From Brachybacterium alimentarium (GTDB taxonomy: Bacteria > Actinomycetota > Actinomycetes > Actinomycetales > Dermabacteraceae): a stretch of DNA of 64,000 nucleotides. Shown in pieces: positions 34,978-59,954 of the stretch. Both the position numbers and the translations under genes were made by a program. The DNA lies in assembly GCF_002332425.1 (NCBI RefSeq), contig NZ_NRGS01000003.1:28964-92963 (forward strand), in the 5' to 3' direction. A model generated the notes under the pieces. The model searched no databases and was not told the origin of the DNA. It saw only the letters and a program-made list of their open reading frames with translations. How positions within the stretch are numbered: position 1 is the stretch's first letter; each line of letters opens with the position of its first letter.

Positions 34978-35664
34978 ATGAGTGACACCCCTTCCTACCG
35001 GGTCGCGCAGGGCGCCGACGTCTCGGACGGCGCGTCCGTCGGTGCCGGCAGCTCGATCTGGCACCTCGCCCAGGTCCGTGAGGGCGCGGTGCTCGGCACC
35101 GACTGCGTCGTGGGCCGTGGCGCCTATATCGGCTCCGGCGTGCAGATGGGCAACGGCTGCAAGATCCAGAACTACGCGCTGGTTTACGAGCCCGCTGTGC
35201 TCGCCGACGGCGTCTTCGTCGGCCCCGCGGCCGTGTTCACCAACGACCACTTCCCCCGGGCCGTGAACCCCGATCTCTCCGCGAAGTCCGCCTCGGACTG
35301 GGAACCCGTCGGCGTGACCTGCGAGACGGGGGCCTCGATCGGAGCGCGCGCGGTCTGCGTCGCCCCGGTGACCATCGGAGCCTGGGCGATGGTCGCGGCC
35401 GGTGCCACCGTGGTCAAGGACGTCCCCCCGTACGCGCTGGTCGCCGGGGTTCCCGCCAAGCGGCTCGGCTGGGTGGGCCGCTCGGGCGAGAAGCTCGTGC
35501 CTGCCTCCGACGGGACCGACGCCTGGGTGTGCCCGACGACCGGCGAGTGGTACATCCCCGACGATTCCACGGGCGGGCTCCTGCTCGCCTCCTCCCCCCT
35601 GGCCGACGCACCGCGTCCGGCCCACCTCACTGACCCCGATGGACAGGACGGACCCTCCGCATGA
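34978..35664 (+). CDS. WbpD-like UDP-sugar 3-N-acetyltransferase
   Basis: Left-handed beta-helix acetyltransferase, 228 aa. Hexapeptide repeats run through residues about 12-150 (VGAGSSIWHLAQVREGAVLG and on), and the probable catalytic His is in TNDHFPRAVNP. The family acetylates the 3-amino group of UDP-GlcNAc(3NH2)A to give UDP-GlcNAc(3NAc)A. The last 60 residues are an extension beyond the fold. The ATG at 34978 was chosen from the -10 box and family N-terminus. It overlaps the aminotransferase gene by 4 bases. Confidence 0.88.
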   Translation: MSDTPSYRVAQGADVSDGASVGAGSSIWHLAQVREGAVLGTDCVVGRGAYIGSGVQMGNGCKIQNYALVYEPAVLADGVFVGPAAVFTNDHFPRAVNPDLSAKSASDWEPVGVTCETGASIGARAVCVAPVTIGAWAMVAAGATVVKDVPPYALVAGVPAKRLGWVGRSGEKLVPASDGTDAWVCPTTGEWYIPDDSTGGLLLASSPLADAPRPAHLTDPDGQDGPSA

Positions 35665-36770
35665 ACACCGAATTCTCGATGATCCCCCCGGCGAAGCCGA
35701 TCATCGGTCAGGAGGAGCGGGACGCGGTGGACCGTGTCCTGGCGTCCGGCATGGTGGCGCAGGGGCCGGAGGTCGAGGCGTTCGAGCAGGAGTTCTCGGG
35801 CGCGCTGGCCGGTGGCCGTGAGGTCGTGGCCGTGAACTCGGGGACCTCGGGTCAGCATCTGGGGATGCTGGCGCTGGGGCTGTCCAGCGGGGACGAGGTC
35901 ATCGTGCCGTCGTTCACGTTCGCGGCGACCGCGAACACGGTCGCCGTCAGCGGCGGGACGCCGGTGTTCGTGGACGTCGACCCCGAGACCTTCACCCTGG
36001 ATCCCGCGATGATCGACGCGGCGGTCACGGAGCGCACGGTGGGCATCCAGCCGGTGCACCTGTACGGGCATCCGGCCGCGATGGACGAGATCATGGCGAT
36101 CGCCGCGAAGCACGACCTGTGGGTGTTCGAGGATGCCGCGCAGGCGCACGGTGCGACCTGGCAGGGCAGCCAGGTGGGCACATTCGGGCAGGCCGGCATG
36201 TTCTCGCTGTACCCGACGAAGAACATGACCTCGGGCGAGGGCGGCATGGTCTCGTGCGGGACGGCGGAGACGGCGCGCCAGGTGCGGCTGCTGCGCAACC
36301 AGGGCATGGAGAAGCAGTACGCGAACGAGGTCGCCGGCTACAACAACCGCATGACCGACATCCACGCGGCGATCGGGCGGGTCCAGCTGGGCAAGCTCGC
36401 GGGCTGGACGGAGACCCGTCGGGAGAACGCGGCGTTCTTCGACGCGCATCTGCGCGGTGTGGTCACGCCGGTGGTCCGCGACGGGGCGCAGCACGTGTAC
36501 CACCAGTACACGATCCGGATCGAGGGGGCCTCCGCGCAGGAACGGGACGCGTTCGCGACCGCGCTGCGGGAGGAGCACCGGGTGGGATGCGGGGTGTACT
36601 ACCCCACGCCCGTGCACCGTCTGGAGACGTTCCGGACCGAGGTGGATCTGCCGGTGACCGAGCAGCTGGCCCGTGAGGTGCTGTCGCTGCCGGTGCATCC
36701 CAGCATCACCGACCAGGACCGCGAGCGGATCGTCGCGGCCGTGAACACCGTGGCGAAGGCGGGTGCGTGA
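35661..36770 (+). CDS. WbpE-like DegT/DnrJ/EryC1 aminotransferase
   Basis: PLP-dependent sugar aminotransferase, 369 aa, likely converting the 3-keto intermediate of UDP-GlcNAcA to the 3-amino sugar with glutamate. The PLP lysine is in MFSLYPTKNMTSGEGGM. Other landmarks are VAVNSGTSGQHLGMLAL, VFEDAAQAHGATWQG and NYRMT-like NNRMTDIHAAIGRVQL. It is coupled to its neighbours by 4-base overlaps on both sides, the WbpD-E-B set that usually travels together. Confidence 0.93.
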   Translation: MNTEFSMIPPAKPIIGQEERDAVDRVLASGMVAQGPEVEAFEQEFSGALAGGREVVAVNSGTSGQHLGMLALGLSSGDEVIVPSFTFAATANTVAVSGGTPVFVDVDPETFTLDPAMIDAAVTERTVGIQPVHLYGHPAAMDEIMAIAAKHDLWVFEDAAQAHGATWQGSQVGTFGQAGMFSLYPTKNMTSGEGGMVSCGTAETARQVRLLRNQGMEKQYANEVAGYNNRMTDIHAAIGRVQLGKLAGWTETRRENAAFFDAHLRGVVTPVVRDGAQHVYHQYTIRIEGASAQERDAFATALREEHRVGCGVYYPTPVHRLETFRTEVDLPVTEQLAREVLSLPVHPSITDQDRERIVAAVNTVAKAGA

Positions 36771-37786
36771 GCATGGCGAAGAATCTCAGGGCCGGTCTGA
36801 TCGGTCTGGGCATGATGGGTCGTCATCATGCCCGCAACCTGCGCTCCCTGGAGGGCGTGGACCTCGTCGCGGTCGCGGACGCCTATGGCGATCCCCATGG
36901 TGCGGCGCCCGAGCTGGACGTGCTGCCCGATGTGGAGGGGCTGATCGCCGCGGGCATCGACTACGCGGTCGTCGCGGTCCCGACCCAGTTCCACCGGGAC
37001 GTGGCGCTGCGGCTGGCCGAGGCGGGCGTGCACACGCTGGTGGAGAAGCCGCTGGCGTTCGACATCGGCGAGGCGGAGGAGATCGCGGCCGCGTTCGAGG
37101 ATGCCGGCCTGGTCGGCGCCGTCGGCTACATCGAGCGGTACAACCCGGCGCTGCAGGAGATGCGTCGGCGGATCGCCGACGGGCAGCTGGGGGAGATCTA
37201 CCAGATCGTCACCCGTCGTCAGGGCGGGTTCCCGGCCCGGATCGCGGATGTCGGCGTGGTCAAGGACCTCGCCACCCATGACCTCGATCTCACCGCGTGG
37301 GTGGCGCAGTCCCCGTACGCGTCGGTGGCGGCGACCTCGACGCGTCGCAGCGGCCGTGAGGACGAGGACATGGTCTCCGTCGCGGGTCGTCTCGAGGACG
37401 GCACGATCACCAACCACCTGGTGAACTGGCTGTCCCCCTTCAAGGAGCGCGTCACCGTGGTGACGGGCGAGAAGGGGGCGCTGTTCGGCGACACCCTGAA
37501 CGCCGACCTCACCTTCCACGCCAACGCCGATGCCGCCACCAACCTCTGGGAGTCCATGGCCTCCTTCCGCGGCGTGAGCGAGGGCGACTCGATCACGTAC
37601 TCCCTGCAGCGCCAGGAGCCGCTCGCGACGGAGCACCAGGCGTTCCGCGACGCGATCGGCGGCGACACCTCCAACATCGTCACCATGCGCGAGGGCCTGC
37701 ACACCGTCCGCACCGTCGAGGCGGTGCTGGAGAGCGCTCGGGAGGGCCAGGTCGTGCGTCTGGACACGGCCGCATCCGGTGAGTGA
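36767..37786 (+). CDS. WbpB-like UDP-GlcNAcA 3-dehydrogenase (Gfo/Idh/MocA)
   Basis: NAD-dependent sugar oxidoreductase, 339 aa. The Rossmann motif GLIGLGMMGRHHARNL is at the N-terminus, and the catalytic lysine is in VEKPLAFDIGEA. GAVGYIERYNPALQEMRRRI is typical of WbpB-like enzymes. It would oxidise C3 of UDP-GlcNAcA so that the WbpE-like enzyme can transaminate it. The start is GTG 36767 (overlapping the previous stop) or ATG 36773, two codons on; the choice hardly changes the protein. It overlaps the following glycosyltransferase gene by 8 bases. Confidence 0.92.
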   Translation: MSMAKNLRAGLIGLGMMGRHHARNLRSLEGVDLVAVADAYGDPHGAAPELDVLPDVEGLIAAGIDYAVVAVPTQFHRDVALRLAEAGVHTLVEKPLAFDIGEAEEIAAAFEDAGLVGAVGYIERYNPALQEMRRRIADGQLGEIYQIVTRRQGGFPARIADVGVVKDLATHDLDLTAWVAQSPYASVAATSTRRSGREDEDMVSVAGRLEDGTITNHLVNWLSPFKERVTVVTGEKGALFGDTLNADLTFHANADAATNLWESMASFRGVSEGDSITYSLQRQEPLATEHQAFRDAIGGDTSNIVTMREGLHTVRTVEAVLESAREGQVVRLDTAASGE

Positions 37787-39260
37787 TCTCGACAGCGTCC
37801 GTGAGCGCGTCCTTCGGCTCGCGTTCCGGACGGCACGCTCGCTGCCCGGTGCGGCCGGCGGGATGGGCGTCTACTTCTCCGCCCAGCAGCGGCTTGCGGA
37901 GGATCCCCGCTACGCCGGCTGGCGGCGAGACGTCGCGACCATGCTGCGACGCGCGGATCGGCGCTTCCTGCGCGGGCACGTGGCCTCGGCCCTGCGCTGG
38001 TACGACAAGGCGCTGCGGATCAGCTACGACCCGTCCCTCCACCAGACCGGCGGATCACCCCTGGCACAGGACCCGGATGCGTTCCTGCGTCCGTTGCGGC
38101 AGTCCGCTCTGGGCACCGTCCTCCTGGACGGCACCGTCCCGGAGGGGACCGCGCCCCCGCGCCCGGCACCTCGCCGCCGCGGTGAGGACGAGCCGCTGCG
38201 CCTCGTGGTCGTGGCGCAGGAGAACTGGACCTTCATGCGCCCTCTCCTGGCGGCGCTGCGCGCCACCGGACGCTACGAGGTGCAGGAGATCGAGGTCGAC
38301 GATCTCCCCGACGGCGGTTTCCCGGATCGCGAGCGGATCATCCGTGGCCGGTACGACCTGCTGACCACCGGGCGACGGATGCCCACCCCTCCCGCTCTCG
38401 TCGAGGCCTTCGAGTGGGCGGATGTCGTCCTCGTCGAATGGAGCCATCACGTCCTGACCTGGATGACCCTGCTCGACCGGGCACCGCGCCGGCTGATGGC
38501 GAGGATCCACCGCTTCGAGGCGTTCACGCCGTTCGTGCTGCTGCACGACCACCGGCGGATCGATCGGATGCTCTATGTCTCCCCGCCCGTGTGGGCGATG
38601 CTCACCACGATCGCTCCCGGCTACTCCGACGTCCCCTCGTCCCAGGTGGGGAACCTCCTGGCCCGTGGCGTCGAGCAGCTGCCGCGGGAGGCCCATGATC
38701 CGCATCTCCTGGTGCAGATCGGATGGATCCGCGAGGTCAAGGACGTGCTGTTCAGCCTTGACGTGCTGACCCGTCTGCGACAGCACGACGAGCGGTACCG
38801 CCTGCAGCTGGTCGGCCCCGCGCTGCAGGGGGACGAGGCGCGGGACACCCCGTACCAGCGTCGGGTGCGCGCCGCGCTGGGCCGTTTCCCGGACGGCGTC
38901 GTCGAGCAGCTCGGGGTGCGGGACGATGTGCCCTCGCTCCTGGCGCAGTCGGGTGCCATCCTGTCCTCGTCCCGGCACGAGGGCACCCACGAGTCCCTGA
39001 TGGAGGCGCTCGTGGTGGGATGCCCGGCCGTGATCCGGGACTGGCCGGACACCGTCGCCTACGGAGGCCCGGCTACGCTCTACTGTCCCGACTGGGTCGT
39101 GGCCGACGCCGACGCCGCGGCGCAGCGCATCCTCGAGCTGGCGGATCCGCAGCGCTACCGCGAGGAGTCCGCCGACGCCCGGGAGTTCGCCCTCGCGCAT
39201 CGTGACCCTGCCGTGGTCGTCGCGGGGTACGAGCACGTGCTGCAGGACCCCACCGCGTGA
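37779..39260 (+). CDS. Glycosyltransferase, GT4-like
   Basis: Putative cytoplasmic glycosyltransferase, 493 aa. The C-terminal half has the GT-B donor-domain pattern: QIGWIREVKDVLFSLDVLTRL, QLVGPAL, GVRDDVPSLLAQSGAILSSS, and RHEGTHESLMEALVVGCPAVI (the EGxxxxxxEA pattern typical of GT4). The N-terminal 140 residues are basic and unlike standard GT4 acceptor domains. It is preceded directly by the wbp genes, so the ManNAc3NAcA-type sugar is a likely donor, but this is inference. GTG start inside the wbpB-like gene end. Confidence 0.8.
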   Translation: MSDLDSVRERVLRLAFRTARSLPGAAGGMGVYFSAQQRLAEDPRYAGWRRDVATMLRRADRRFLRGHVASALRWYDKALRISYDPSLHQTGGSPLAQDPDAFLRPLRQSALGTVLLDGTVPEGTAPPRPAPRRRGEDEPLRLVVVAQENWTFMRPLLAALRATGRYEVQEIEVDDLPDGGFPDRERIIRGRYDLLTTGRRMPTPPALVEAFEWADVVLVEWSHHVLTWMTLLDRAPRRLMARIHRFEAFTPFVLLHDHRRIDRMLYVSPPVWAMLTTIAPGYSDVPSSQVGNLLARGVEQLPREAHDPHLLVQIGWIREVKDVLFSLDVLTRLRQHDERYRLQLVGPALQGDEARDTPYQRRVRAALGRFPDGVVEQLGVRDDVPSLLAQSGAILSSSRHEGTHESLMEALVVGCPAVIRDWPDTVAYGGPATLYCPDWVVADADAAAQRILELADPQRYREESADAREFALAHRDPAVVVAGYEHVLQDPTA

Positions 39261-39267
39261 TCTCCGC

Positions 39268-41274
39268 ATGAGCTCTGTGCTTCCCGTCCTGTGCGGCGCC
39301 GTCCTGCTCGGTGCGCCCGGATACCTCATGCTGTGCGCGCTCGACGTGCGCCTTCGCCTCCGCTGGGGGTGGGCTCCCGCGGTGACCGTGCTGCTGACCG
39401 TCGTGCTCGGGGCGCTCTTCCGGGTGCTCGGCATCCGGTGGACGCTGCTCAGTGCGGTCATCGGCATCGTGCTGCTGGTGGCCCTCGCCGCCGTCGTGCG
39501 TCTCGCGCTGCAGCGCCGGACGGCGCGCAGACTGACCACCAGCACCAGCACCAGCACCAGCACCAGCACCAGCACCAGCACCAGCACCAGCACCAGCACC
39601 GGCGTCGGCGTCCCGGCGCCGCAGGACTGGTCGCGAGGCACTGCGGCGGCGGTCACCGGGGCCTCGATCCTGAGCGGCGCGCTGGTGGCGGCATCCGCTG
39701 CCCGGCGCATGGGCGGGATCTCGACGCTGAACGGCAGCTTCGACTCCTTCTTCCACCTCTCCGCTGCTGCCTTCATCCGGGAGCGCGGGGACGCCTCCTT
39801 CACCACGGCGCTCTCTGACATCTACGGCGAGCCGACCTTCTATCCCGTCGTGTTCGACGACCTCGTCGCGATCCTGCCCTTCGACGTCATCACGGCCGCC
39901 AACGCGATGATGCTCGCCATGCTGGCCGCGATCCCTCCTGCGGTCGCGGCGATGGTCGCGGGCGTGTCGCGGCCCGCCCGCTCCGCACCGCTGCTGGTGG
40001 CTCTCAGCGCGGGCGCGGCCACGCTGTTCCTCAGCACCCCGGCGATGGCCCTGGTGATGGGGCTGTGGCCGATCGTCCTCGGTGTGGTCTGCCTGCCTCC
40101 CGCGATCGCCGCAGTGCTGATGCTGACGGATCGTCGTCACGGTGCGCCGGGCGTGGGCACGGCGGCCGGCCTCGTCCTCATCGTGATCGGCACCGCGCTG
40201 GCCCATCCGTCGGTCCTGTTCTCCGTGGCGGTCGTGGCCGGACTCCGCCTCCTGGCCGGCGGCATCGAGCGGATGCTCGGCGGTGGCCGTCTGCGCGGGC
40301 TGATCGAGGTCTGCGCTGCTCTCGCCGCTGCGGTCCTGTTCGTCGCCGGCTCCCACGTGCTGCTCAGCGGGATGGCGCTCACGAAGCCCAGCCTCGACGG
40401 GGTGGGGTCGGTCCTCGGGGAGATCCTGCTCGATTCTCCGCGGATCCCCGCGGTGCCCGCACTGCTGTGGCCGATGGCGGCCCTCTGGATCCTCGCGATG
40501 ATCGGTGCTGCTGCCGCGGTCCGGAGCCGGGAGGTGCTGGGAGCAACGGCTGCTCTCGGCCTGCTCGCCTCGCTGATACTCGGCGTCGCCACCCAGATCG
40601 ACCATCCGCTCGCGGTGGCACTGGTCAACCCCTGGTACGGCGCTCGCGAGCGCATCGCACCCCTGATGATGTGCATGCTGGTGCTGTTCATGGCCCGGGG
40701 CCTGCTCGCCCTCCTCGAGCCCGGCGGTCGACGCCGTCGGTCGCTGCCCGGGGCGCTGGCCGTCGGCGCCGTGGTGGTGACGGTGCTGATCGCGCTCGTG
40801 ACGCCCCAGCGGCTGCCGCTGATGGGATCGCTCGCGTACACCGCCTACGGAGTGCAGCTGACCCCGTACGTCACCTCCGAGGAGCGCAGCTTCATCGAGC
40901 GCACCGCGCAGGAGCTGCCCGAGGGGTCCGTCGTCCTCGCGGATCCTCTGGACGGGGCGACCCTGTACTGGTCCGTCGGCGGGGTGGAGACCGTCTTCCC
41001 GACCATGTCGAGGCCCCTGACCCGGGAGAAGACGCTGATCGCCCACTACGCGCATCGTGCGGGCACCGACGAGGCCTCCGTGGAGCTGTGCCGGGCGCTG
41101 GAGTCGGTGGGCCCCACGCACCTGTACCGCGACACGTCCGAGGCATCCGGCCAGCGGATCAATCCCGAGGATTCCGAGCGCTGGCGTGGGGTCCACGACA
41201 TTCCCGAGTCCCGACTGACCCTGGTCGACGCGAGCGGCCCGTACGCTCTGTACGAGCTGGACCCGGCGTGCTGA
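39268..41274 (+). CDS. DUF6541-type polytopic membrane protein with Ser-Thr repeat
   Basis: Large membrane protein, 668 aa, about 12-14 hydrophobic segments, with a C-terminal extracytoplasmic domain of about 150 residues. I read it as a GT-C-fold-like family member. The motif SFDSFFHLSAAAFIRERGDA lies in the first large outer loop, where GT-C enzymes place the catalytic Asp. Another landmark is NPWYGARERIAPLMM. A (Ser-Thr)x10 run sits at about residues 92-111, in the loop after the third helix. The second paralogue is at 50570-52510. Function unknown; transfer from a polyprenyl-phosphate sugar is the best guess. Confidence 0.75.
   Translation: MSSVLPVLCGAVLLGAPGYLMLCALDVRLRLRWGWAPAVTVLLTVVLGALFRVLGIRWTLLSAVIGIVLLVALAAVVRLALQRRTARRLTTSTSTSTSTSTSTSTSTSTSTGVGVPAPQDWSRGTAAAVTGASILSGALVAASAARRMGGISTLNGSFDSFFHLSAAAFIRERGDASFTTALSDIYGEPTFYPVVFDDLVAILPFDVITAANAMMLAMLAAIPPAVAAMVAGVSRPARSAPLLVALSAGAATLFLSTPAMALVMGLWPIVLGVVCLPPAIAAVLMLTDRRHGAPGVGTAAGLVLIVIGTALAHPSVLFSVAVVAGLRLLAGGIERMLGGGRLRGLIEVCAALAAAVLFVAGSHVLLSGMALTKPSLDGVGSVLGEILLDSPRIPAVPALLWPMAALWILAMIGAAAAVRSREVLGATAALGLLASLILGVATQIDHPLAVALVNPWYGARERIAPLMMCMLVLFMARGLLALLEPGGRRRRSLPGALAVGAVVVTVLIALVTPQRLPLMGSLAYTAYGVQLTPYVTSEERSFIERTAQELPEGSVVLADPLDGATLYWSVGGVETVFPTMSRPLTREKTLIAHYAHRAGTDEASVELCRALESVGPTHLYRDTSEASGQRINPEDSERWRGVHDIPESRLTLVDASGPYALYELDPAC
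39541..39600 (+). repeat. Tenfold agcacc hexanucleotide repeat
   Basis: Ten exact copies of agcacc inside the DUF6541-type gene, encoding a (Ser-Thr)x10 run. Gain or loss of units keeps the reading frame, so it would vary loop length rather than switch the gene off. Confidence 0.97.
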
Positions 41275-41338
41275 CGCCGCCGGGTCCGCCTTCGGGCCGC
41301 ACTTCCCGCACGGCCTCAACCCCTGAGGAGTTATCCAC

Positions 41339-43183
41339 GTGAAGCAGACGATCAGGATCGTCCGACGAACGCTCTCGGTCCTGCCCCGGGAATCCCGTCG
41401 ATTCCTGATGGCGTTCGCCGCCGTCATGAGTGTCCTCGCCCTCCTGGACGTGGTCGCGCTCGGCGCGATCGCGCTCGTGATCCCGGCGCTCATGAACCCG
41501 GGGACTGCGGTGACGATCCCGCTGGTCGGCTGGAGGTTGGAGACCTTCGAGGAGATGATGATCCTCGTCGCCGCCTTCGTCGGCCTGATCATCATCAAGA
41601 GCTTCCTGAACCTGCTGACCATCAGGATCGCCACCCAGCGCTTCGCCCAGCACGAGGTCGCGATCGGACAGACCCTGTTCCGCTCGTACATGTCGGCCTC
41701 CTGGGTGGACCGCACCTCGAAGTCGACCCAGGAGATCATCCGCATGGTCGACTCCGGCGTCGCCGCCGTCGTCGCCAACGTGCTGATGCCGTCGATGACC
41801 GTGGTCGCCGAGTTCGCGACCATCTCCGTGATCAGCGTCGGCCTGTTCATCCTGGACTGGAAGATCGCGCTGGCGACCTTCGCGTACCTCGGAGCCATCG
41901 CCCTGATCCTGTCGAGGGTGGTCACCCCGCTGGCGGTCACCAACGGCGCCTCCAACCGCGACAACTCCATCCGCGTGGTCAGCCTCCTGGGCGAAGTGCT
42001 CGCGGCGCTGAAGGAGCTCACGCTGAAGGGCAACGAGACCGAGGTCGCGGACATCGTCGCCGACCGACGCTCGGACGCGTCGCGGACCCGGGCCTTCGCC
42101 CAGTACTACAACCAGATGCCGCGCTTCGTCCTGGACGCCGGGATGGTCGGCGGATTCGTCGTGGTGGGCGGGGTCGGCTATCTCTCCGGGCTGCCCGACG
42201 ACGGCGCCACCGCCGCCATGACCTCCGTCGCGCTGTTCGCCGTGGCAGGCTTCCGCCTGGTGCCCTCGCTGACGCGGTTCCAGTCGACCCAGAACCGGAT
42301 CCTCACCAACGCCGCCTTCGCCGACTACATCATCGACGACATCGAGTTCGCCCGCGAGGCGGTCGAGCGCAAGGAGCGGCCCGACACCGGGAGCCTCGTC
42401 CACGGCCTGCACGACATCGTCCTGGAGGACGTCACCTTCACCTATCCGGGCAGGGAGGAGCCGGCGGTCGACGCCGTCTCCCTGCACATCCCGGCCGGTT
42501 CCTCCGTCGCCTTCGTCGGCTCGTCCGGCGCGGGCAAGTCCACCCTGGTGGATCTGCTGCTCGGCCTGCTCACGCCGAGCAGCGGACGCATCCTCATCGA
42601 CGACGTCGACATGACCACGGTGCTGCGCCAGTGGCGCTCCTCGGTCGGGTACGTGCCGCAGGAGGTCGCGCTCTTCGACGTGTCCGTCGGCGAGAACGTC
42701 GCCCTGACCTGGGATCCGGCAGAGGTCGACGAGGAGCGTGTGCGCACGGCGCTCTCCCGCGCGCAGATGCTCGAGGTGATCGAGGACCGCCCGCAGGGCA
42801 TCCACGGCCGGCTGGGCGAGCGCGGCATGACCCTCTCTGGGGGCCAGCGCCAGCGCATGGGCATCGCTCGCGGCATGTACGCGGAGCCGACGGTGCTCGT
42901 GCTCGACGAGGCCACCAGCGCCCTGGACACGAAGACGGAGGCCGCGGTCACCGAGGCGATCCGTGGCCTGGCCGATGAGGTCACCACGATCACGATCGCC
43001 CACCGCCTGGCCACCATCCAGTACTGCGACATCGTCTTCTACATGTCCGAGGGGCAGGTCATGGCCTCCGGCTCGTTCGACGAGGTCGTCGCGTCGGTGC
43101 CGGCCTTCGCCGAGCAGGCCGCCCTGGCAGGCCTGGCACGGGCCGGGGAGCGTCGTGAGCCCGTCACCGAGGAGGAGGCATGA
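41339..43183 (+). CDS. PglK-like ABC flippase
   Basis: Half-transporter with fused membrane and ATPase domains, 614 aa. Six hydrophobic segments lie within residues 20-310. The NBD has Walker A FVGSSGAGKSTLVDLLLGLL, Q-loop GYVPQEVALF, signature LSGGQRQRMGIARGM, Walker B VLVLDEATSALD and the H-loop IAHRL. Overall similarity is to PglK/Wzx-type ABC flippases of lipid-linked oligosaccharides. The GTG start has GAGGAG upstream. It overlaps the following glycosyltransferase by 4 bases and follows a putative GT-C gene, fitting glycan export. Confidence 0.9.
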   Translation: MKQTIRIVRRTLSVLPRESRRFLMAFAAVMSVLALLDVVALGAIALVIPALMNPGTAVTIPLVGWRLETFEEMMILVAAFVGLIIIKSFLNLLTIRIATQRFAQHEVAIGQTLFRSYMSASWVDRTSKSTQEIIRMVDSGVAAVVANVLMPSMTVVAEFATISVISVGLFILDWKIALATFAYLGAIALILSRVVTPLAVTNGASNRDNSIRVVSLLGEVLAALKELTLKGNETEVADIVADRRSDASRTRAFAQYYNQMPRFVLDAGMVGGFVVVGGVGYLSGLPDDGATAAMTSVALFAVAGFRLVPSLTRFQSTQNRILTNAAFADYIIDDIEFAREAVERKERPDTGSLVHGLHDIVLEDVTFTYPGREEPAVDAVSLHIPAGSSVAFVGSSGAGKSTLVDLLLGLLTPSSGRILIDDVDMTTVLRQWRSSVGYVPQEVALFDVSVGENVALTWDPAEVDEERVRTALSRAQMLEVIEDRPQGIHGRLGERGMTLSGGQRQRMGIARGMYAEPTVLVLDEATSALDTKTEAAVTEAIRGLADEVTTITIAHRLATIQYCDIVFYMSEGQVMASGSFDEVVASVPAFAEQAALAGLARAGERREPVTEEEA

Positions 43184-44307
43184 CCTCCCTGCTGATCCTG
43201 TCGTTCTCCACCCTGGAACGAGATCCCCGGGTGCAGCGCCAGATCGAGCTGTTCGCCGAGGACTACGAGGTCACCACGGTGGGCTTCGGCCCGCAGCCGC
43301 ATCCGGGTGTCACCCATCTCGAGCTGCCCGGGGACACCCGGGCGTGGCCCAGCAGCAAGAAGCATCTGCTCACCGGCCGCTACCGGCAGGCGTACTGGGC
43401 GATGAGCGCGGTGCGTGCGGCGCACGAGACGCTGGACGAGCTGGTGGGGGCGATGGACATCGTGCTGGCCAACGACGTGAACACGCTGCCGCTGGCCCTG
43501 TGGCTCGCACCGCGGCGCGGCGTCCACGCCGACCTGCACGAGTACGCGCCCCGCGAGAAGGAGCACGTGCGCAGCTGGCGCTGGTTCATCGCGCCGTACC
43601 AGCGGTGGATCTGCCGCACCTGCCTGCCGCAGGTCGACTCCGTGACCACGGTGTCCCCGGGGCTGGCCGCCGAGTACCACGACCAATTCGGCGTCGACGT
43701 CGAGGTGGTCACGAACGCAGCGGCCTACGAGCAGCGCAGTCCGCGCCCGACGGAGGGCACGATCCGGCTCCTGCACACGGGGGTCGCCCGGGCCAACCGC
43801 CGCCTGGACGCGATGATCGACGCCCTGCGCGGGGCGCCGGACGGCGTCACCCTCGACCTCATGTTGGTCCCCAGCGAACCCGGGTACATCGATGCGCTGC
43901 GGGAGCGGGCCGCGGACCTGCCCGCGGTGCGATTCCGCGAGCCGGTCCCGTACACGGAGCTGGTCGAGACGGTCGCCGAGTACGACGTCTCGATCGTGGT
44001 GTTCCCCGCCACCACCTTCAACCTCGAGCACAGCCTGCCCAACAAGCTCTTCGAGGCGGTGCAGGCGCGCACGGCGGTGCTGGTGGGGCCGTCACCGGAC
44101 ATGGCCGACCTGGTGCGTGAGCACGGCATCGGCGAGGTGCTCGAGGGCGCCGACGCCGATGCGCTGCGCTCGGCGCTGGCCACGATGACCCCGGAGGACG
44201 TGGACGGCTGGAAGCAGGCCTCCGACGCGGCCGCCCGGGAGCTCTCCGCGGAGCACCAGGTGAGCGGCTGGAGCCGGGCACTCGCCCGCCTCGCCGAGGC
44301 AGGGTGA
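43180..44307 (+). CDS. Glycosyltransferase, GT-B fold
   Basis: Putative glycosyltransferase, 375 aa. The N-terminus, LILSFSTLERDPRVQRQIEL, is of the type seen in GT4 enzymes of capsule clusters. ANDVNTLPLALWL and DLHEYAPREKEH match the acceptor domain, and SLPNKLFEAVQARTAVLVGP is the nucleotide-sugar region. It clearly resembles the minus-strand gene at 46587-47948 (shared NDxNTLxxAL and LPNKLFE), so the two are paralogues. It overlaps the flippase gene by 4 bases. Sugar specificity is unknown. Confidence 0.85.
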   Translation: MTSLLILSFSTLERDPRVQRQIELFAEDYEVTTVGFGPQPHPGVTHLELPGDTRAWPSSKKHLLTGRYRQAYWAMSAVRAAHETLDELVGAMDIVLANDVNTLPLALWLAPRRGVHADLHEYAPREKEHVRSWRWFIAPYQRWICRTCLPQVDSVTTVSPGLAAEYHDQFGVDVEVVTNAAAYEQRSPRPTEGTIRLLHTGVARANRRLDAMIDALRGAPDGVTLDLMLVPSEPGYIDALRERAADLPAVRFREPVPYTELVETVAEYDVSIVVFPATTFNLEHSLPNKLFEAVQARTAVLVGPSPDMADLVREHGIGEVLEGADADALRSALATMTPEDVDGWKQASDAAARELSAEHQVSGWSRALARLAEAG

Positions 44308-44354
44308 CCGCTCCTCCTCGCTGAGCGACCGCGTGCCGCGCGCACGCCCGCCGA

Positions 44355-44369
44355 CCGGCCGAGGGCCGG
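44355..44369. terminator. Small hairpin between convergent glycosyltransferase genes
   Basis: ccggcc-gag-ggccgg (44355-44369), a 6-bp stem, in the 70-base gap between convergent genes; modest strength. Confidence 0.35.
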
Positions 44370-44377
44370 CCCGGGGC

Positions 44378-47948: not shown

Positions 47949-48065
47949 CGCTCTCTGGCCTGGCGTCATGCAAATTCCGTTCTCGCGTCCGGCAATGGCG
48001 CGGGGCCGCGCCGATCACCGCTGAGGTCAGGTCCTGTGATGTACCGACCGACGTCGGCGGTTGGC

Positions 48066-48071
48066 TATTGT
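48066..48071 (+). promoter_or_regulatory. Candidate -10 box TATTGT for the epimerase gene
   Basis: TATTGT in the 200-base divergent gap between the minus-strand glycosyltransferase and the epimerase. It implies a leader of about 70 bases carrying the GGAAGAGGAG ribosome binding site. No other feature is evident in the gap. Confidence 0.35.
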
Positions 48072-48148
48072 GGAGCACGCTCACCATACCGTCGTCCTGG
48101 TCGGCACCGCTCGGAGCATCGCCGGGTCCGGGAAGAGGAGATCCGTCC

Positions 48149-49213
48149 GTGAAGATCCTGTCCGTCGTGGGCGCCCGCCCGCAGTTCGTCAAGCTCGCCG
48201 CGATCGCCGATGCCGCCGCGCAGCGGGACGACGTCGAGCACCTCATCGTCCACACCGGCCAGCACTACGACGCCGCCATGAGCGACGTCTTCTTCGCTGA
48301 CCTGCGGATCCCTGCCCCGGATGTCAACCTCGCGATCGGGTCCGGCTCCCACGGCCGCCAGACCGGCGCGATGCTCGCCGGGATGGACGAGGTCCTCGAG
48401 GAGCACCGGCCCGACTGGACCCTCGTCTACGGCGACACCAACTCCACCCTCGCCGGCACGCTCTCCGCCGTGAAGATGCACCTCAAGGTCGCCCACCTCG
48501 AAGCCGGCCTGCGCTCCTTCAACCGCCGCATGCCCGAGGAGCACAACCGTGTGCTCACCGATCACGCCGCTGACCTCCTCCTGGCACCCACCGAGGTCGC
48601 CCGCACGCATCTCGCCGCCGAGGGTCTCGCCGAGCGCACCCTGGTCACCGGCGACGTGATGACCGACGTGTGCCTGCGTGTCGCCGCCTCCGTCGAGGGC
48701 GCCGAGCCGGCCCTGCCCGAGGGCATCGACCCCACCGCGGAGTTCGCGGTCGCGACCATCCACCGCGCCGACAACACCGATGATCCAGAACGTCTGCGCG
48801 CGATCATCCGGTCCCTGCAGTCGCTCGAGATGCCCCTGGCCCTGTTCGCTCACCCGCGCCTGGTCGCCAAGGCGAAGGACGCGGGCATCGAGCTGAGCGG
48901 AGGGGCCGTGCATGTCGGCGCGCCCGTCGCCTATCCGGACCTCGTGGGCGCCGTGAAGCAGGCCCGAGCAGTGGTCACCGATTCCGGCGGCCTGCAGAAG
49001 GAGGCCTACCTGCTGGGCACTCCCTGCTCCACCGTGCGCACCGAGACCGAATGGGTCGAGACGCTCGAGGACGACTGGAACCGCCTGGTCCCCGATCCGT
49101 CCGAGCTGACCGCGGCGGTGAGCCGCCCCCGGCCCACCGCGGATCGCCCGGCCCACTACGGCGACGGACGGGCCGCACTGCGCTCCGTCGACGCCCTCCG
49201 TGAGAACGCCTGA
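48149..49213 (+). CDS. wecB: UDP-N-acetylglucosamine 2-epimerase (WecB/WbpI type)
   Basis: Non-hydrolysing 2-epimerase, 354 aa. Family blocks are intact: VGARPQFVKLAAIADA, HTGQHYD, YGDTNSTLAGTLSAVK, KVAHLEAGLRSFNRRMPEEH and VTDSGGLQKEAYLLGTPC. It either makes UDP-ManNAc from UDP-GlcNAc (WecB) or epimerises UDP-GlcNAc(3NAc)A (WbpI). The wbpB/D/E-like genes nearby favour the second role as strongly as the first. The GTG at 48149 has GGAAGAGGAG upstream; the longer open frame is not supported. It overlaps the next gene by one base. Confidence 0.93.
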   Translation: MKILSVVGARPQFVKLAAIADAAAQRDDVEHLIVHTGQHYDAAMSDVFFADLRIPAPDVNLAIGSGSHGRQTGAMLAGMDEVLEEHRPDWTLVYGDTNSTLAGTLSAVKMHLKVAHLEAGLRSFNRRMPEEHNRVLTDHAADLLLAPTEVARTHLAAEGLAERTLVTGDVMTDVCLRVAASVEGAEPALPEGIDPTAEFAVATIHRADNTDDPERLRAIIRSLQSLEMPLALFAHPRLVAKAKDAGIELSGGAVHVGAPVAYPDLVGAVKQARAVVTDSGGLQKEAYLLGTPCSTVRTETEWVETLEDDWNRLVPDPSELTAAVSRPRPTADRPAHYGDGRAALRSVDALRENA

Positions 49214-50418: not shown

Positions 50419-50448
50419 CGCCCGCACGCCCTGACGCCCGCACGCCCT
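50401..50448 (+). repeat. Three 16-bp tandem repeats containing a stop codon
   Basis: Three exact copies of gacgcccgcacgccct (50401-50448). The first encodes DARTP and the TGA that ends the glycosyltransferase gene spans its junction with the second. Degenerate copies continue to about 50490. The array sits between convergent genes; the rest of the 151-base gap holds no gene. Confidence 0.9.
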
Positions 50449-50569
50449 GACGACTGAACCCCCTGGCGGCTGAACGCCCTGACGACTGCATACGTCGGCA
50501 CCGGCCACGATGGCATCGGCACGCGCCGAGACTCGGTGCCTGCTGACGCGCGAACCCCGACGTCCGGGA

Positions 50570-52510
50570 TCAGGACGAGGCGTCCCCGCCGTCGCCGGGA
50601 TCGCAGTCGATCTCGATCATGCGCGAGTGCTTCGTCTCGAACAGGACGACGCCGAGATCCCGCCCGGCGAGGTTCACCGCGTCGGAGGTCGAATGGACGC
50701 TGTAGGGCAGGCGCTCCTGGTAGACGTAGCGGATCCCGTTCTCCTGGAGGGTCCGGCACGACGCCGGGTTCGTCGCAGCGTCCTTCGTCGCGTAGAGCAG
50801 CTCGCGGTCGAGGTCCGTGTACGCCATCCCGGCGACCGGCAGGCGCACGTCCTGCCCGTACATCGCATAGAGGTGAGCGGCGCCGGAGAACGGGCTCGCC
50901 AGCACCGTTCCCCCGTGGTCCATCTGCGGCACGTACTCCTGGAAGAGGGCCAGCTCGTCGGCCTGCAGGAAGCGACCGCGCCCGGGATAGTCCAGGGCGA
51001 AGTTCTTCGCGGCGTTGTCCGAGCGGGTGGGGACCGACGCGAGGGACGCGATGAGCGCCCCCGCCACCAGCACGACCACGATCGGCGTGGAGGGGCGGGG
51101 CCGGCGACCGTCGGCCCGCTGCGGTCCGAACAGGCGCGTCCAGGCCTGCAGTCCCGGCACCACGAGCACGCACGAGAGCATCGCCAGCGGCATCGCGACC
51201 CGGTCCTGGCCGCGGTAGTAGATGGCGGAGAGGCCCAGGGGGGAATCGAGCGCCGCGTCGAGGTAGATCACCGCGACCACCACCCAGGCGACGGCGACCC
51301 AGCGCACCGCAGGGCGCCGGAACGTGGTGACCAGGCCCGGCCACCACAGCGCCGCGATCACCACGCCGAGAGCCATCGGCCAGACGGTGAGCAGCCCCAG
51401 ACCGATCTCGCCGAGCGCCCGCCACCACTCGATCACCAGCCCGCCGCTGAAGCCGGTGACCTGGGAGCCCAGAGGGGTGAAGGTGAGCAGCACGACCGGC
51501 AGCAGGGCGAGCACGGGAGCGACGACCAGCAGCGGGCGGGCGCGCCATGACGGCGCGCCGGTGACGGCGGTGAGCACGGCGAGCAGGATCAGCGCGGTCA
51601 CGGCCACGTTGGGGTGCAGCAGTCCCAGCCCGGCGCCGGCGAGCCCCACAGCGAACAGGGCGGCCGCCGTCGCCCCCGGCGCGAACCGGGGCAGCAGGGT
51701 CGTCCACAGGGCGGCGGCCGCGGCCAGCGCGCCGGGGAGCGCCGCGAAACCGCACAGGTTGGGGGTGGGGGAGAGGTGGACCCAGAGGTCCAGCGGAGCC
51801 GCAGGGATCAGCGCAGCGGTGATCCCCGCGGCGAACGGCGCCCAGGGGACGTCGCGGAACAGCACACGGGCCAGGAGCGCGATGCCCAGGATCCAGGGCA
51901 GCACGGCCAGGGCCAGCACGGCGCCGTTGAGCACGACGGGAGTGGGCCCCCAGGGCACCAGGGCGGCGAGGGCATGGAACGCGGCCGGGTAGAAGCTGGG
52001 ATCGCCGGAGGTGTTCGAGATCGAGCCGACGTGCAGGCTCGAGGCGTCACCGACCTCGCGGATCCGCTCCAGCGCGGAGAGGTGGTAGAGCGCGTCCCAG
52101 CGCTCGAGGACGGCGCCCGGGCGGCCGGCCTGGAGCGCGATGGGGACCACGGCGATCGCCACGGATCCCACCAGCCACGCTCCGCCCCAGGGGACGGCAC
52201 GGCGGGGCATCAGCCGCCCGTCCAGCACCGTCGAGGGCAGCTGCGCGCCGAGCCGGCGCAGGCCGAAGGCGAGGGCCACGAGCGCCGCACTGCCCAGCAG
52301 GAAGGGGAGCAGCGACCATCGAAGCCCCAGGGGTGCGACGAGGATCGCGCTGATCCCGGCGATCGCGGCCGCGAACGCCGGGGCCAGCGCGAGGGAGAGC
52401 AGGCGCGACCCGCCCAGGGCTCGGACCGCGACGTACCCGGGGAGGTACGCCGCGGCCAGGACCACGAGGATCGCGACGAGCAGGGCGAGGGCGGCGAGCA
52501 GAGCGGTCAT
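50570..52510 (-). CDS. DUF6541-type polytopic membrane protein
   Basis: Membrane protein, 646 aa, with 12-14 hydrophobic segments and a C-terminal extracytoplasmic domain of about 130 residues. It is related to the 39268-41274 product: both share a Dx(2-3)HLSA segment (here RWDALYHLSALERIREVGDA), a GDPSFYP stretch, an RGQDRVAMPLAM-type loop and a C-terminal domain with VLASPFSGAAHLYA. The Ser-Thr repeat is absent. Its ATG overlaps the DUF2304 gene by 4 bases. Function is unknown; a GT-C-like glycosyltransferase is my inference. Confidence 0.75.
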   Translation of the reverse strand: MTALLAALALLVAILVVLAAAYLPGYVAVRALGGSRLLSLALAPAFAAAIAGISAILVAPLGLRWSLLPFLLGSAALVALAFGLRRLGAQLPSTVLDGRLMPRRAVPWGGAWLVGSVAIAVVPIALQAGRPGAVLERWDALYHLSALERIREVGDASSLHVGSISNTSGDPSFYPAAFHALAALVPWGPTPVVLNGAVLALAVLPWILGIALLARVLFRDVPWAPFAAGITAALIPAAPLDLWVHLSPTPNLCGFAALPGALAAAAALWTTLLPRFAPGATAAALFAVGLAGAGLGLLHPNVAVTALILLAVLTAVTGAPSWRARPLLVVAPVLALLPVVLLTFTPLGSQVTGFSGGLVIEWWRALGEIGLGLLTVWPMALGVVIAALWWPGLVTTFRRPAVRWVAVAWVVVAVIYLDAALDSPLGLSAIYYRGQDRVAMPLAMLSCVLVVPGLQAWTRLFGPQRADGRRPRPSTPIVVVLVAGALIASLASVPTRSDNAAKNFALDYPGRGRFLQADELALFQEYVPQMDHGGTVLASPFSGAAHLYAMYGQDVRLPVAGMAYTDLDRELLYATKDAATNPASCRTLQENGIRYVYQERLPYSVHSTSDAVNLAGRDLGVVLFETKHSRMIEIDCDPGDGGDASS

Positions 52511-52935
52511 CCGTCCTGACGGTCGCGCAGCGCCGCGGCGCGGTACTGCGACGGCGGCTGCGCCTCATCCAGGGCGAGGCGCCGGGCCAGATACGTCGTC
52601 CGCTTCTCGGCCGCCTTGGTGCGGGCCTCCTGCAGCGCGAGGAAGCCCAGCAGCACCAGGACGGTGGCGTACAGCAGCAGATCGGCGCCACGACCCACGC
52701 CCACCAGGTTCGCGACGCGGGAGAGCATCCCCGGGAACAGGACCGTCACCACGGCGAAGAACGCGAAGGCGATGATAAGCAGGCGACGCACCGCGAGCTG
52801 CTTCGCGCCGCGCTTGACGAACAGCCAGGCGATGATCCCGACGATCCCCAGCACCAGCAGGAGCTGGATGATGAAGGTGCGGCTCTCGACCCCGAGCGCG
52901 GGGCCGAGGCTGACGATCAGCTCGTGCTCACCCAC
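52507..52935 (-). CDS. DUF2304 small membrane protein
   Basis: 142 aa with three hydrophobic segments (about residues 22-40, 48-68 and 84-100) and a basic/acidic tail, matching DUF2304. These proteins often sit beside DPM1-like GT2 enzymes and are thought to help flip or present the polyprenyl-phosphate sugar; such a GT2 is encoded at 54437, just across the divergent promoter. GTG start 5 bases after the dehydrogenase stop, and 4-base overlap with the DUF6541-type gene, so three genes form one operon. Confidence 0.8.
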   Translation of the reverse strand: MGEHELIVSLGPALGVESRTFIIQLLLVLGIVGIIAWLFVKRGAKQLAVRRLLIIAFAFFAVVTVLFPGMLSRVANLVGVGRGADLLLYATVLVLLGFLALQEARTKAAEKRTTYLARRLALDEAQPPSQYRAAALRDRQDG

Positions 52936-52940
52936 AGGGC

Positions 52941-54266
52941 TCAGGCCTCCTCAGCCTGCTGGTGGGTGGAGGCGGAGCCGTCGCCGAGGACGAGGCGAGG
53001 GGTCCCGGTCCAGTTCTCGGCGGTGGTGATGTTGCGGCCGTCGATGACGAGCTTCACGCCGGGGACGTCGGCGGCGGTGAGGTCCTTGTACTCGGCGTGG
53101 TTGGTCTGCACGATCACCAGGTCCGCCTCCTCGCCCACGTGGTACGGGGCCCAGCCGAAATCGGCGAGCTCCTCGTCGTCGTAGTACGTGTCGTGGACCG
53201 CGACCTCGGCGCCGTGCTCGCGCAGCGCCTCGACCACCGGGAACACGCCCGAGAACGCGGTCTCCTTCACCCCGGTCCGGTACGAGGCGCCGAGCACCAC
53301 GGCCTTCATCCCGGACAGATCGCCCAGCAGGCTCGAGGCCCGCTCGACGAGCTTCGCGGGGACCGAGGCGTTCAGGGTGCGAGCGGTGCGCACCGTCTCG
53401 GCCTTGGGATCGGTGGAGAGGTACAGGCGCGGGTAGACGGGGATGCAGTGCCCGCCCACGGCGATGCCGGGCTGGTGGATGTGGGAGTAGGGCTGCGAGT
53501 TGCTGGCCTCGATGACCTTGTAGACGTCGATGCCGTTGTCCTGGGCGAACAGGGCGAACTCGTTGGCCAGCCCGATGTTCACATCGCGGTAGGTGGTCTC
53601 GGCGAGCTTCGCGAGCTCCGAGGCCTCCGGGGTGCCCAGGTCCCATACGCCGTTGGGGCGGTGCAGATCGGGCCGCTCGTCGAACTGGAGCGCGGATTCG
53701 TAGAACTCACGAGCCTTCGCCGTGCCCTCGGCGGTCAGCGCACCGATCAGCTTGGGGTACTTGCGCAGGTCCTCGAACACGCGCCCGGTGAGGACGCGCT
53801 CAGGGGAGAACACCGCATGGAAGTCGACGGACTCCTTCAGCCCGGAGATCTCCTCGATCATCGGCACGAACCGGCCCCGCAGGGTGCCCACCGGCAGGGT
53901 GGTCTCGTAGGAGACCAGGGTGCCCGGGGTGATGTGCTCGGCCAGCGAGCGGGTCGCGGCGTCCATCCAGCCGAAGTCCGGCTCCCAAGTGGCGTCGTTC
54001 ACGAACAGGGGGACCACGATCACGATCGCGTCCGCGTCCGGGATCGCCTCGGCGTAGTCGGTGGTCGCGCGCAGCTTCCCGGCCGGCACCAGCTCGGAGA
54101 GCTTCTCCTGCAGGTGCGCTTCGCCGGGGAACGGCTCCGTGGCCTGGTTGATCAGCTCGACCTGCCGGGGGTTGGTGTCCACTCCGGTCACCTCGTGACC
54201 GGCATCGGCGAACTGCACGGCCAGCGGCAGTCCGATCTTCCCAAGGGCAACGACAGCAGTCTTCAC
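52941..54266 (-). CDS. UDP-N-acetyl hexosamine 6-dehydrogenase (WecC/WbpA type)
   Basis: NAD-dependent four-electron oxidation of C6 of a UDP-HexNAc to the uronic acid; 441 aa. The Rossmann motif VVALGKIGLPLAVQFADAGH is at the N-terminus and the catalytic Cys is in VGGHCIPVYP. VVLGASYRTGVKETAFSG in the second NAD-like domain is typical. UDP-ManNAc (WecC) or UDP-GlcNAc (WbpA) as substrate cannot be told apart by eye; nearby wbpB/D/E-like genes suggest WbpA. GGAGGA lies 8 bases before the GTG at 54266, which rules out longer starts. Confidence 0.92.
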   Translation of the reverse strand: MKTAVVALGKIGLPLAVQFADAGHEVTGVDTNPRQVELINQATEPFPGEAHLQEKLSELVPAGKLRATTDYAEAIPDADAIVIVVPLFVNDATWEPDFGWMDAATRSLAEHITPGTLVSYETTLPVGTLRGRFVPMIEEISGLKESVDFHAVFSPERVLTGRVFEDLRKYPKLIGALTAEGTAKAREFYESALQFDERPDLHRPNGVWDLGTPEASELAKLAETTYRDVNIGLANEFALFAQDNGIDVYKVIEASNSQPYSHIHQPGIAVGGHCIPVYPRLYLSTDPKAETVRTARTLNASVPAKLVERASSLLGDLSGMKAVVLGASYRTGVKETAFSGVFPVVEALREHGAEVAVHDTYYDDEELADFGWAPYHVGEEADLVIVQTNHAEYKDLTAADVPGVKLVIDGRNITTAENWTGTPRLVLGDGSASTHQQAEEA

Positions 54267-58701: not shown

Positions 58702-59898
<1,197 letters not shown>

Positions 59899-59954
59899 GA
59901 AGACCGCCCCGCCGTGCAGCACGGGGCCTCCGCAGACCGCCGACGAGGAGCATC

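What the first reader, a model, noticed from the sequence alone, without database searches (positions are those of the whole stretch)
34978..54266. Complete WbpA/B/D/E/I set for UDP-ManNAc(3NAc)A, split over about 19 kb
Five enzyme types needed to turn UDP-GlcNAc into a di-N-acetylated mannuronic acid nucleotide are all present: 6-dehydrogenase (52941-54266), 3-dehydrogenase (36767-37786), aminotransferase (35661-36770), N-acetyltransferase (34978-35664) and 2-epimerase (48149-49213). D-E-B form one coupled operon. The pathway is known from Pseudomonas and Bordetella O-antigens; in a Gram-positive actinobacterial wall it would imply an acidic diamino-uronate polymer. The motifs are seen; the pathway assembly is inference.
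Basis: partly seen in the sequence, partly recalled or inferred. Interest (0 to 1): 0.7.

Follow-up and report, generated by a model that had tools for sequence, protein, structure and literature searches.

The report
Diamino-mannuronic acid genes in Brachybacterium
An actinobacterium (Brachybacterium or a very near relative) carries the five enzymes needed to make an unusual acidic sugar with two amino groups, most likely for a cell-wall polymer; the same kind of pathway is already known from Streptomyces walls, so this is a solid new example rather than a surprise.

Summary
All five enzymes are real and sit where stated; the 6-dehydrogenase is on the minus strand. The window is Brachybacterium-like. 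(i) The 2-epimerase groups with the T. thermophilus UDP-GlcNAc3NAcA 2-epimerase, not WecB, and has its Gln14, Tyr96 and Trp307, but Leu instead of Ala18. (ii) The 6-dehydrogenase forms a clade apart from WecC; every sampled genome with it also has the 3-dehydrogenase: 49 of 49 (149 genomes of the order) and 55 of 55 (296 of the class). (iii) All five lie within 5-17 kb in 27 of 80 related loci. Two corrections: the 3-dehydrogenase is not WbpB by descent; and ManNAc3NAcA in an actinobacterial wall is already published for Streptomyces griseus (PMC13274773). Verdict: correct observation, new member of a known kind. No chemistry was tested.

The parts
34978..35664 (+). N-acetyltransferase (WlbB/WbpD-like, hexapeptide fold); alternative ATG at 34906
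   Evidence: Best PDB match 3mqg, named 'Lipopolysaccharides biosynthesis acetyltransferase', 143 bits, next best 73 (that 3mqg is a Bordetella WlbB is recalled); 44% and 40% identical to the acyltransferases of the Deinococcus and Sulfitobacter clusters
35661..36770 (+). sugar 3-aminotransferase (WbpE-like, DegT/StrS family)
   Evidence: PseC model 260 bits, below cut-off; WbpE 3nyu 197 bits, but seven other DegT-family chains score higher; 4-base overlap with both neighbours
36767..37786 (+). sugar 3-dehydrogenase, Gfo/Idh/MocA; thought to do the WbpB step but not of the WbpB lineage
   Evidence: NF040723 UDP-GlcNAc 3-dehydrogenase (archaeal) 197 bits, cut-off 450; WbpB structures 3o9z and 3oa2 not among the 60 shown of 85 PDB matches
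48149..49213 (+). UDP-GlcNAc3NAcA 2-epimerase (WbpI/WlbD-like)
   Evidence: 8sxv 347 bits against E. coli 1f6d 121; Gln14/Tyr96/Trp307 present, Leu at Ala18; tree; only TIGR00236 match in the genome
52941..54266 (-). UDP-sugar 6-dehydrogenase of the cassette clade (WbpA step)
   Evidence: TIGR03026 298 bits; clade 99/98 apart from WecC; co-occurs with the 3-dehydrogenase 49/49 and 55/55
33620..34777 (+). membrane acyltransferase (Acyl_transf_3), possible O-acetylation of the polymer; start overlaps purE
   Evidence: PF01757 102 bits; role inferred
37779..39260 (+). glycosyltransferase (GT4 type), overlaps the end of the 3-dehydrogenase gene
   Evidence: PF13692, PF00534
39202..41274 (+). DUF6541 protein, role unknown (polymerase or GT-C-like transferase is a guess)
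   Evidence: PF20176 310 bits
41339..43183 (+). ABC exporter, candidate lipid-linked glycan flippase of the PglK type
   Evidence: PF00005/PF00664; aligns over residues 8-574 with PglK 5c73, 226 bits; two-domain ABCB exporters score higher in sum
43180..44307 (+). glycosyltransferase (GT4 type)
   Evidence: PF13439
44378..45478 (-). glycosyltransferase family 2
   Evidence: PF00535
46587..47969 (-). glycosyltransferase (GT4); a further GT4 domain lies in the minus-strand frame 45475-48255, C-terminal part
   Evidence: PF00534, PF13692
49213..50418 (+). glycosyltransferase (GT4) directly after the 2-epimerase
   Evidence: PF13579, PF13692
50570..52510 (-). second DUF6541 protein
   Evidence: PF20176 306 bits
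55259..56845 (-). LytR-CpsA-Psr protein, candidate ligase of glycopolymer to peptidoglycan (the true start is probably at a lower coordinate than 56845, as another gene overlaps)
   Evidence: PF03816 144 bits; one of 4 in the genome

Best explanation
The five genes are one biosynthetic module, found in about a fifth of the sampled Actinomycetes genomes (most of those with all five), that turns UDP-GlcNAc into UDP-ManNAc3NAcA: oxidation at C6 (6-dehydrogenase), oxidation at C3 (a Gfo/Idh 3-dehydrogenase not of WbpB descent), amination at C3 (DegT aminotransferase), N-acetylation (hexapeptide transferase) and C2 epimerisation (WbpI/WlbD-like). The surrounding glycosyltransferases, the PglK-like exporter and the LCP protein then build it into a wall glycopolymer of the teichuronic-acid kind. 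Shown: gene identity, co-occurrence, conserved clustering, epimerase class. Inferred: the chemistry, the order of the two oxidations, the polymer and its attachment.
For: Epimerase: 347 bits to the T. thermophilus UDP-GlcNAc3NAcA 2-epimerase against 121 for E. coli WecB. Of 89 distinct epimerases in my fetched loci, the 63 at 55% identity or more to the window's (its own copy included) all carry Gln14/Tyr96/Trp307, and the 17 with Glu14, E. coli WecB among them, all carry Arg307. In the tree it is apart from the WecB-type group at 99/90 and with the T. thermophilus type at 100/97. 6-dehydrogenase: own clade at 99/98, apart from E. coli WecC and two actinobacterial WecC-type copies. Co-occurrence in 149 genomes of the order: 6-dehydrogenase with 3-dehydrogenase 49 of 49; WbpI-type epimerase with 6-dehydrogenase 41 of 42; lower-identity (31-47%) epimerases not associated with it (12 of 47, p = 0.26). 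In 296 genomes of the class: 55 of 55 and 39 of 39. 6 of the 8 order genomes that have the 6-dehydrogenase but no WbpI-type epimerase gave no match to the epimerase query at E 1e-30, so the 6-dehydrogenase does not seem to depend on UDP-ManNAc from an enzyme of that family. Clustering: 27 of 80 loci hold all five within 5.2-16.7 kb; D-E-B contiguous in 75 of 80; 6-dehydrogenase directly upstream of D in 14. Haloferax gibbonsii has acetyltransferase, aminotransferase, Gfo/Idh, 6-dehydrogenase and epimerase in one row. Locus L174, from an unnamed 7.1 Mb genome, has the gene order and strand switch described for S. griseus utrA-J, including a TarS-linker transferase, and its five enzymes are 59-64% identical to the window's.
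Against: The epimerase has Leu at the position that is Ala in the characterised enzyme and typically Leu or Met in UDP-GlcNAc enzymes. The NCBIfam wecB model scores it over its cut-off; but PLSDB also names wecB the epimerase that shares a cluster with a true WbpB in Deinococcus. By profile and PDB the 6-dehydrogenase is nearest UDP-ManNAc dehydrogenases (NF040825, 245 bits of 750; 4r16, 213 bits; Cap5O, 185 bits). The 3-dehydrogenase is not of the WbpB lineage, so its substrate is not assured. 3-dehydrogenase without 6-dehydrogenase occurs: 5 of 54 and 4 of 59 genomes; one order genome, G126, has an epimerase fragment without either. Within 10 kb of the 3-dehydrogenase, 25 of 62 full-flank loci show neither epimerase nor 6-dehydrogenase. 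In Streptomyces plasmids the aminotransferase/3-dehydrogenase pair sits in another setting without the rest. The Fisher p-values ignore relatedness.
Confidence: 0.85

Rival explanations
1. Two separate pathways: epimerase plus 6-dehydrogenase make UDP-ManNAcA (WecB/WecC), while D-E-B make neutral UDP-GlcNAc3NAc for another glycan.
For: TIGR00236 wecB cut-off passed and nearest substrate-specific profile of the 6-dehydrogenase is UDP-ManNAc dehydrogenase; in the window the epimerase lies 10 kb and the 6-dehydrogenase 15 kb beyond D-E-B; some genomes have the 3-dehydrogenase without the 6-dehydrogenase.
Against: In the samples the 6-dehydrogenase is never found without the 3-dehydrogenase (49/49, 55/55) and is found without any epimerase match at E 1e-30 in 6 order genomes; it sits directly upstream of D in 14 of 80 loci; the epimerase has Trp307 and Gln14, not the Arg and Glu of WecB.
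Confidence: 0.07
2. The end product is UDP-GlcNAc3NAcA, with the epimerase serving another sugar or only a minor part.
For: Leu18 departs from the characterised enzyme; 8 of 49 and 16 of 55 genomes have 6-dehydrogenase and 3-dehydrogenase without a WbpI-type epimerase, and S. antibioticus, whose locus lacks the 2-epimerase, makes a GlcNAc3NAcA homopolymer (PMC13274773).
Against: This genome has the epimerase inside the cluster, and it is the only TIGR00236 match in the genome; S. griseus, with a 2-epimerase gene, has ManNAc3NAcA.
Confidence: 0.06
3. The right sugar is made, but for a capsule, glycoprotein or lipid-linked glycan rather than a wall-bound teichuronic-acid-like polymer.
For: The ABC exporter aligns end to end with PglK, which flips protein-glycosylation oligosaccharides (recalled); no linkage chemistry is known here; the genome's TagF-like and TarS-linker matches lie on another contig, C14.
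Against: An LCP gene lies in the same stretch and relatives of the five lie in a utr-type wall locus.
Confidence: 0.2

Closest known systems
Streptomyces griseus utrA-J teichuronic-acid-like locus (PMC13274773)
   Same: In that paper the species with a 2-epimerase gene has ManNAc3NAcA, the one without has GlcNAc3NAcA.
   Different: Among the window frames that I scanned no TarS-linker transferase or UDP-hexose 4-epimerase came up (the genome's one TarS-linker match is on C14); instead several GT4s, DUF6541 proteins, a PglK-like exporter and an LCP gene. S. griseus sequences themselves were not available.
Pseudomonas aeruginosa WbpA/B/E/D/I and Bordetella Wlb O-antigen pathway
   Same: Same five reaction types; acetyltransferase closest to 3mqg and epimerase closest to the T. 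thermophilus enzyme of the same reaction.
   Different: 3-dehydrogenase of another Gfo/Idh lineage; Gram-positive wall setting.
Thermus thermophilus UDP-GlcNAc3NAcA 2-epimerase (8sxv, PMC10622841)
   Same: Window enzyme 51% identical (L086); of 15 positions compared, 14 agree.
   Different: Leu instead of Ala18.
Haloferax gibbonsii five-gene row (NZ_CP063207)
   Same: Acetyltransferase, aminotransferase, Gfo/Idh, 6-dehydrogenase and epimerase in one row, the last annotated as wecB.
   Different: 3-dehydrogenase only 32% and 6-dehydrogenase 39% identical to the window's; archaeal.

Membership tests
UDP-ManNAc3NAcA (Wbp/Wlb-type) pathway | All five enzyme types present and linked in the genome | tested here: met
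   co-occurrence and clustering
UDP-ManNAc3NAcA (Wbp/Wlb-type) pathway | The five reactions in vitro from UDP-GlcNAc | not testable with these tools
   Needs purified enzymes
WbpI/WlbD UDP-GlcNAc3NAcA 2-epimerase | Groups with the characterised T. thermophilus enzyme, apart from WecB | tested here: met
WbpI/WlbD UDP-GlcNAc3NAcA 2-epimerase | Trp307 in place of Arg, and Tyr96 in place of His/Gln (PMC10622841) | tested here: met
   Window W302 and Y94; also Gln14, which is Glu in the 17 WecB-type sequences
WbpI/WlbD UDP-GlcNAc3NAcA 2-epimerase | Ala18 in place of Leu/Met (PMC10622841) | tested here: not met
   Leu in the window and in all 63 sequences at 55% identity or more, and in the three loci L174-L176; so called WbpI-like, not a strict member
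WbpB 3-dehydrogenase | Descent from the WbpB lineage (3o9z, 3oa2) | tested here: not met
   The Deinococcus neighbour gene scores 426 and 346 bits to 3o9z and 3oa2; the window protein has neither among the 60 shown of 85 PDB matches and no match to that Deinococcus protein at E 1e-3
WecB/WecC UDP-ManNAcA pathway | Epimerase and dehydrogenase in the WecB and WecC clades | tested here: not met
   note that the TIGR00236 cut-off is passed
WbpA UDP-GlcNAc 6-dehydrogenase | Places with P. aeruginosa WbpA | not tested
   No WbpA sequence was at hand; assigned by co-occurrence and gene order
WlbB/WbpD N-acetyltransferase | Closest solved relative is the Bordetella enzyme | tested here: met
   3mqg 143 bits, next best 73 (that 3mqg is WlbB is recalled)
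Teichuronic acid (wall-bound uronate polymer) | Uronic-acid repeat covalently bound to the wall | not testable with these tools
   LCP gene nearby is only suggestive

The most novel reading that the evidence does not exclude
Actinomycetes run their own version of the pathway: a 3-dehydrogenase of separate descent that may act on UDP-GlcNAc before C6 is oxidised (as the name of the archaeal model nearest to it suggests), followed by a 6-dehydrogenase and an epimerase clade adapted (Leu18) to that route; gain and loss of this epimerase switches walls between ManNAc3NAcA and GlcNAc3NAcA across the class.
Probability: 0.3. Interest if true: 0.5.

Novelty: new member of a known kind. Interest (0 to 1): 0.32.

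Why it matters
It extends a wall sugar pathway known from Streptomyces to Brachybacterium and to many other Actinomycetes by gene content (55 of 296 class genomes have both dehydrogenases), and shows that the wecB name in databases can hide diamino-uronate epimerases. It yields a simple prediction, one gene deciding the C2 stereochemistry of a wall acid, that can be checked strain by strain; in Streptomyces such polymers are receptors of umbrella toxins (PMC13274773).

Tried and rejected
Considered and dropped: the WecB/WecC pathway for epimerase and 6-dehydrogenase; the idea that the aminotransferase/3-dehydrogenase pair alone proves the pathway (Streptomyces plasmids carry the pair in another setting); a second epimerase elsewhere in the genome (no other TIGR00236 match). 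The other over-cut-off NDP-sugar dehydrogenase in the genome (C4, 383 bits) is only 26% identical to the window's and is probably a UDP-glucose dehydrogenase (inference, not tested).

Led nowhere: structure prediction of the second DUF6541 protein without an alignment gave mean pLDDT 46, so no fold search was made. Paper searches for Brachybacterium with teichuronic acid (1 paper in the listing, on metals) and with cell wall polysaccharide (14 papers, 10 listed, none on wall structure by title) found no wall chemistry for the genus; neither proves absence, since most subscription papers are not held. Searches for the 3-dehydrogenase (1 paper, on lake viruses by title) and DUF6541 (0 papers) gave nothing useful. 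Kribbella, whose loci hold compact five-gene cassettes, is said to have teichuronic or teichulosonic acid as main wall polymer (PMC6113628, passages), but I found no structure text that ties genes to sugar in a named strain (searches; PMC9912281, passages). PMC13059722 (passages) had nothing on this pathway beyond a citation. Cell-wall papers on actinomycete teichuronic acids (Tul'skaya 2011) were seen only as citations.

Limits of the counts: the 80 loci (the best 80 of 468) were pulled by the 3-dehydrogenase, and many are cut by contig ends or by the 10 kb flank; among the 62 with full flanks, 31 hold the 6-dehydrogenase, 30 the epimerase, 37 either and 25 neither; several of those 25 are Brachybacterium, where the other two genes lie beyond 10 kb. 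The residue table holds 89 distinct sequences of 97, those aligned over at least 300 residues in loci fetched by similarity, not a random sample. The tree used 53 rows and that used 32, chosen by me from the fetched sets.
Full report
Observation. The five frames exist at the stated places with the expected family matches. D, E and B overlap by four bases at each junction, and B overlaps the next glycosyltransferase gene by eight. The 2-epimerase lies 10.4 kb further on the same strand and the 6-dehydrogenase 3.7 kb beyond that on the other strand. The 3-dehydrogenase is 80-92% identical to the copies in Brachybacterium-labelled loci, so the window is Brachybacterium or very near. Of the nine other same-genus genomes in the order sample, six have the 3-dehydrogenase; five of these show the same split layout over 17.5-19.1 kb. 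The other three (G029, G090, G132) gave no match to the 3-dehydrogenase or 6-dehydrogenase and have no epimerase of the window's type.

Setting. Upstream lie biotin ligase, cyclase, two-component and purK genes and purE; around the five lie an acyltransferase, several GT4 and GT2 glycosyltransferases, two DUF6541 proteins, an ABC exporter that aligns end to end with PglK, and an LCP gene. Downstream is a galactofuran set: glf, GlfT2 and an ABC-2 export pair. This looks like a wall-glycopolymer region.

Epimerase. The best solved relatives are the T. thermophilus UDP-GlcNAc3NAcA 2-epimerase structures (345-347 bits), then 4neq (239), 4hwg (159), 7ya2 (153), then E. coli WecB and others at 122 or less. 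The paper on the T. thermophilus enzyme (PMC10622841, abstract and passages) names three positions that fit it to the bulkier substrate: Trp307 for Arg, Tyr96 for His/Gln, Ala18 for Leu/Met. The window enzyme has Trp and Tyr but Leu. Among 89 distinct sequences, the 63 at 55% identity or more to the window's have Gln14, Leu18, Tyr96, Trp307; the Deinococcus, Sulfitobacter, Haloferax and Priestia enzymes have Gln, Ala, Tyr, Trp; five have Asn, Ala or Cys, Tyr, Arg; the remaining 17, E. coli WecB included, have Glu at 14 and Arg at 307. The tree agrees: 28 rows of the window's group at 100/100, with the T. thermophilus type at 100/97, apart from WecB-type at 99/90; some rows there have long branches. 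The Leu is the one residue result against; three utr-like or related loci (L174-L176) carry it too.

6-dehydrogenase. By profile it is a general NDP-sugar dehydrogenase, nearest UDP-ManNAc dehydrogenases but far below their cut-offs. In the tree it forms a 25-row clade at 99/98, separate from a WecC clade that includes second copies in B. paraconglomeratum and Agrococcus terreus; several end branches there are very long. Co-occurrence tells its role better: in 149 genomes of the order, 49 have it and all 49 have the 3-dehydrogenase; 5 genomes have only the latter. In 296 of the class the figures are 55 of 55, with 4 having only the 3-dehydrogenase. The WbpI-type epimerase falls inside the 6-dehydrogenase set in 41 of 42 and 39 of 39; lower-identity epimerases are not associated with it (12 of 47, p = 0.26). 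Relatedness is not corrected for.

3-dehydrogenase. The Gfo/Idh gene in the Deinococcus cluster is WbpB (3o9z 426 bits, 3oa2 346 bits) and is 59% identical to the Sulfitobacter one, but the window protein has no match at E 1e-3 to the former, 28% over 143 residues to the latter and 32% to the Haloferax one; WbpB structures are not among the 60 shown of its 85 PDB matches. Its nearest curated model is the archaeal UDP-GlcNAc 3-dehydrogenase, under the cut-off. So step two is done by an enzyme of other descent, and which oxidation comes first is open.

Gene order elsewhere. In 27 of 80 loci all five genes lie within 5.2-16.7 kb; Kribbella loci have compact cassettes of 6.3 kb, and nine Arthrobacter loci have the 6-dehydrogenase directly before D.

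Comparison with the known. S. griseus carries a ManNAc3NAcA-GalNAc polymer on its wall teichoic acid, and its utr genes were assigned to the five steps by structure prediction; S. antibioticus, whose locus lacks the 2-epimerase, has a GlcNAc3NAcA homopolymer (PMC13274773, passages). An unnamed 7.1 Mb genome has a locus (L174) with the order aminotransferase, Gfo/Idh, TarS-linker transferase, 6-dehydrogenase, NDP-sugar epimerase, then on the other strand two glycosyltransferases (the first a weak match, just under the Pfam cut-off), 2-epimerase, an unassigned stretch and a hexapeptide acetyltransferase, which fits the description of utrA-J; its five enzymes are 59-64% identical to the window's. 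I could not fetch S. griseus itself, so this link is by layout. In my samples 8 of 49 (order) and 16 of 55 (class) genomes have the 6-dehydrogenase without the WbpI-type epimerase and are predicted to make GlcNAc3NAcA.

Verdict. It is a new member of a known kind, with one step of separate descent. No chemistry was tested.

Noticed in passing
window 58735-63794: Galactofuran-type set: UDP-galactopyranose mutase, GlfT2-like transferase and an ABC-2 export pair, next to the diamino-uronate genes.
   Followed up: no
window 39202-41274 (+) and 50570-52510 (-): Two DUF6541 proteins flank the set; relatives (24-54% identity) recur near the 3-dehydrogenase in other Actinomycetes loci. The paper search for the family name gave 0 papers.
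   Followed up: partly
L017 (Agrococcus terreus): All five genes in 6.8 kb at 83-88% identity to the window's, above the other Microbacteriaceae loci fetched: recent transfer or mislabelled contig.
   Followed up: no
L036 (labelled Sporosarcina beigongshangi): A Bacillota-labelled contig with an Arthrobacter-like cassette: transfer or mislabelled genome.
   Followed up: no
L171, L172, L173 (Streptomyces plasmids): Aminotransferase/3-dehydrogenase pair (3-dehydrogenase about 52-53% identical) next to NUDIX, phosphopantetheine-binding, FAD-oxidase and TauD genes: a recurring set of unknown product on linear plasmids.
   Followed up: no
L168 (Priestia megaterium plasmid): Epimerase with Gln/Ala/Tyr/Trp residues, 6-dehydrogenase, two DegT aminotransferases and a glucuronyl C5-epimerase-family gene near spore coat genes.
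   Followed up: no
G000:C14:139979-151783: Two TagF-like (PF04464) matches and one TarS-linker match on another contig: probably a separate wall teichoic acid locus in the same genome.
   Followed up: no
   Followed up: no
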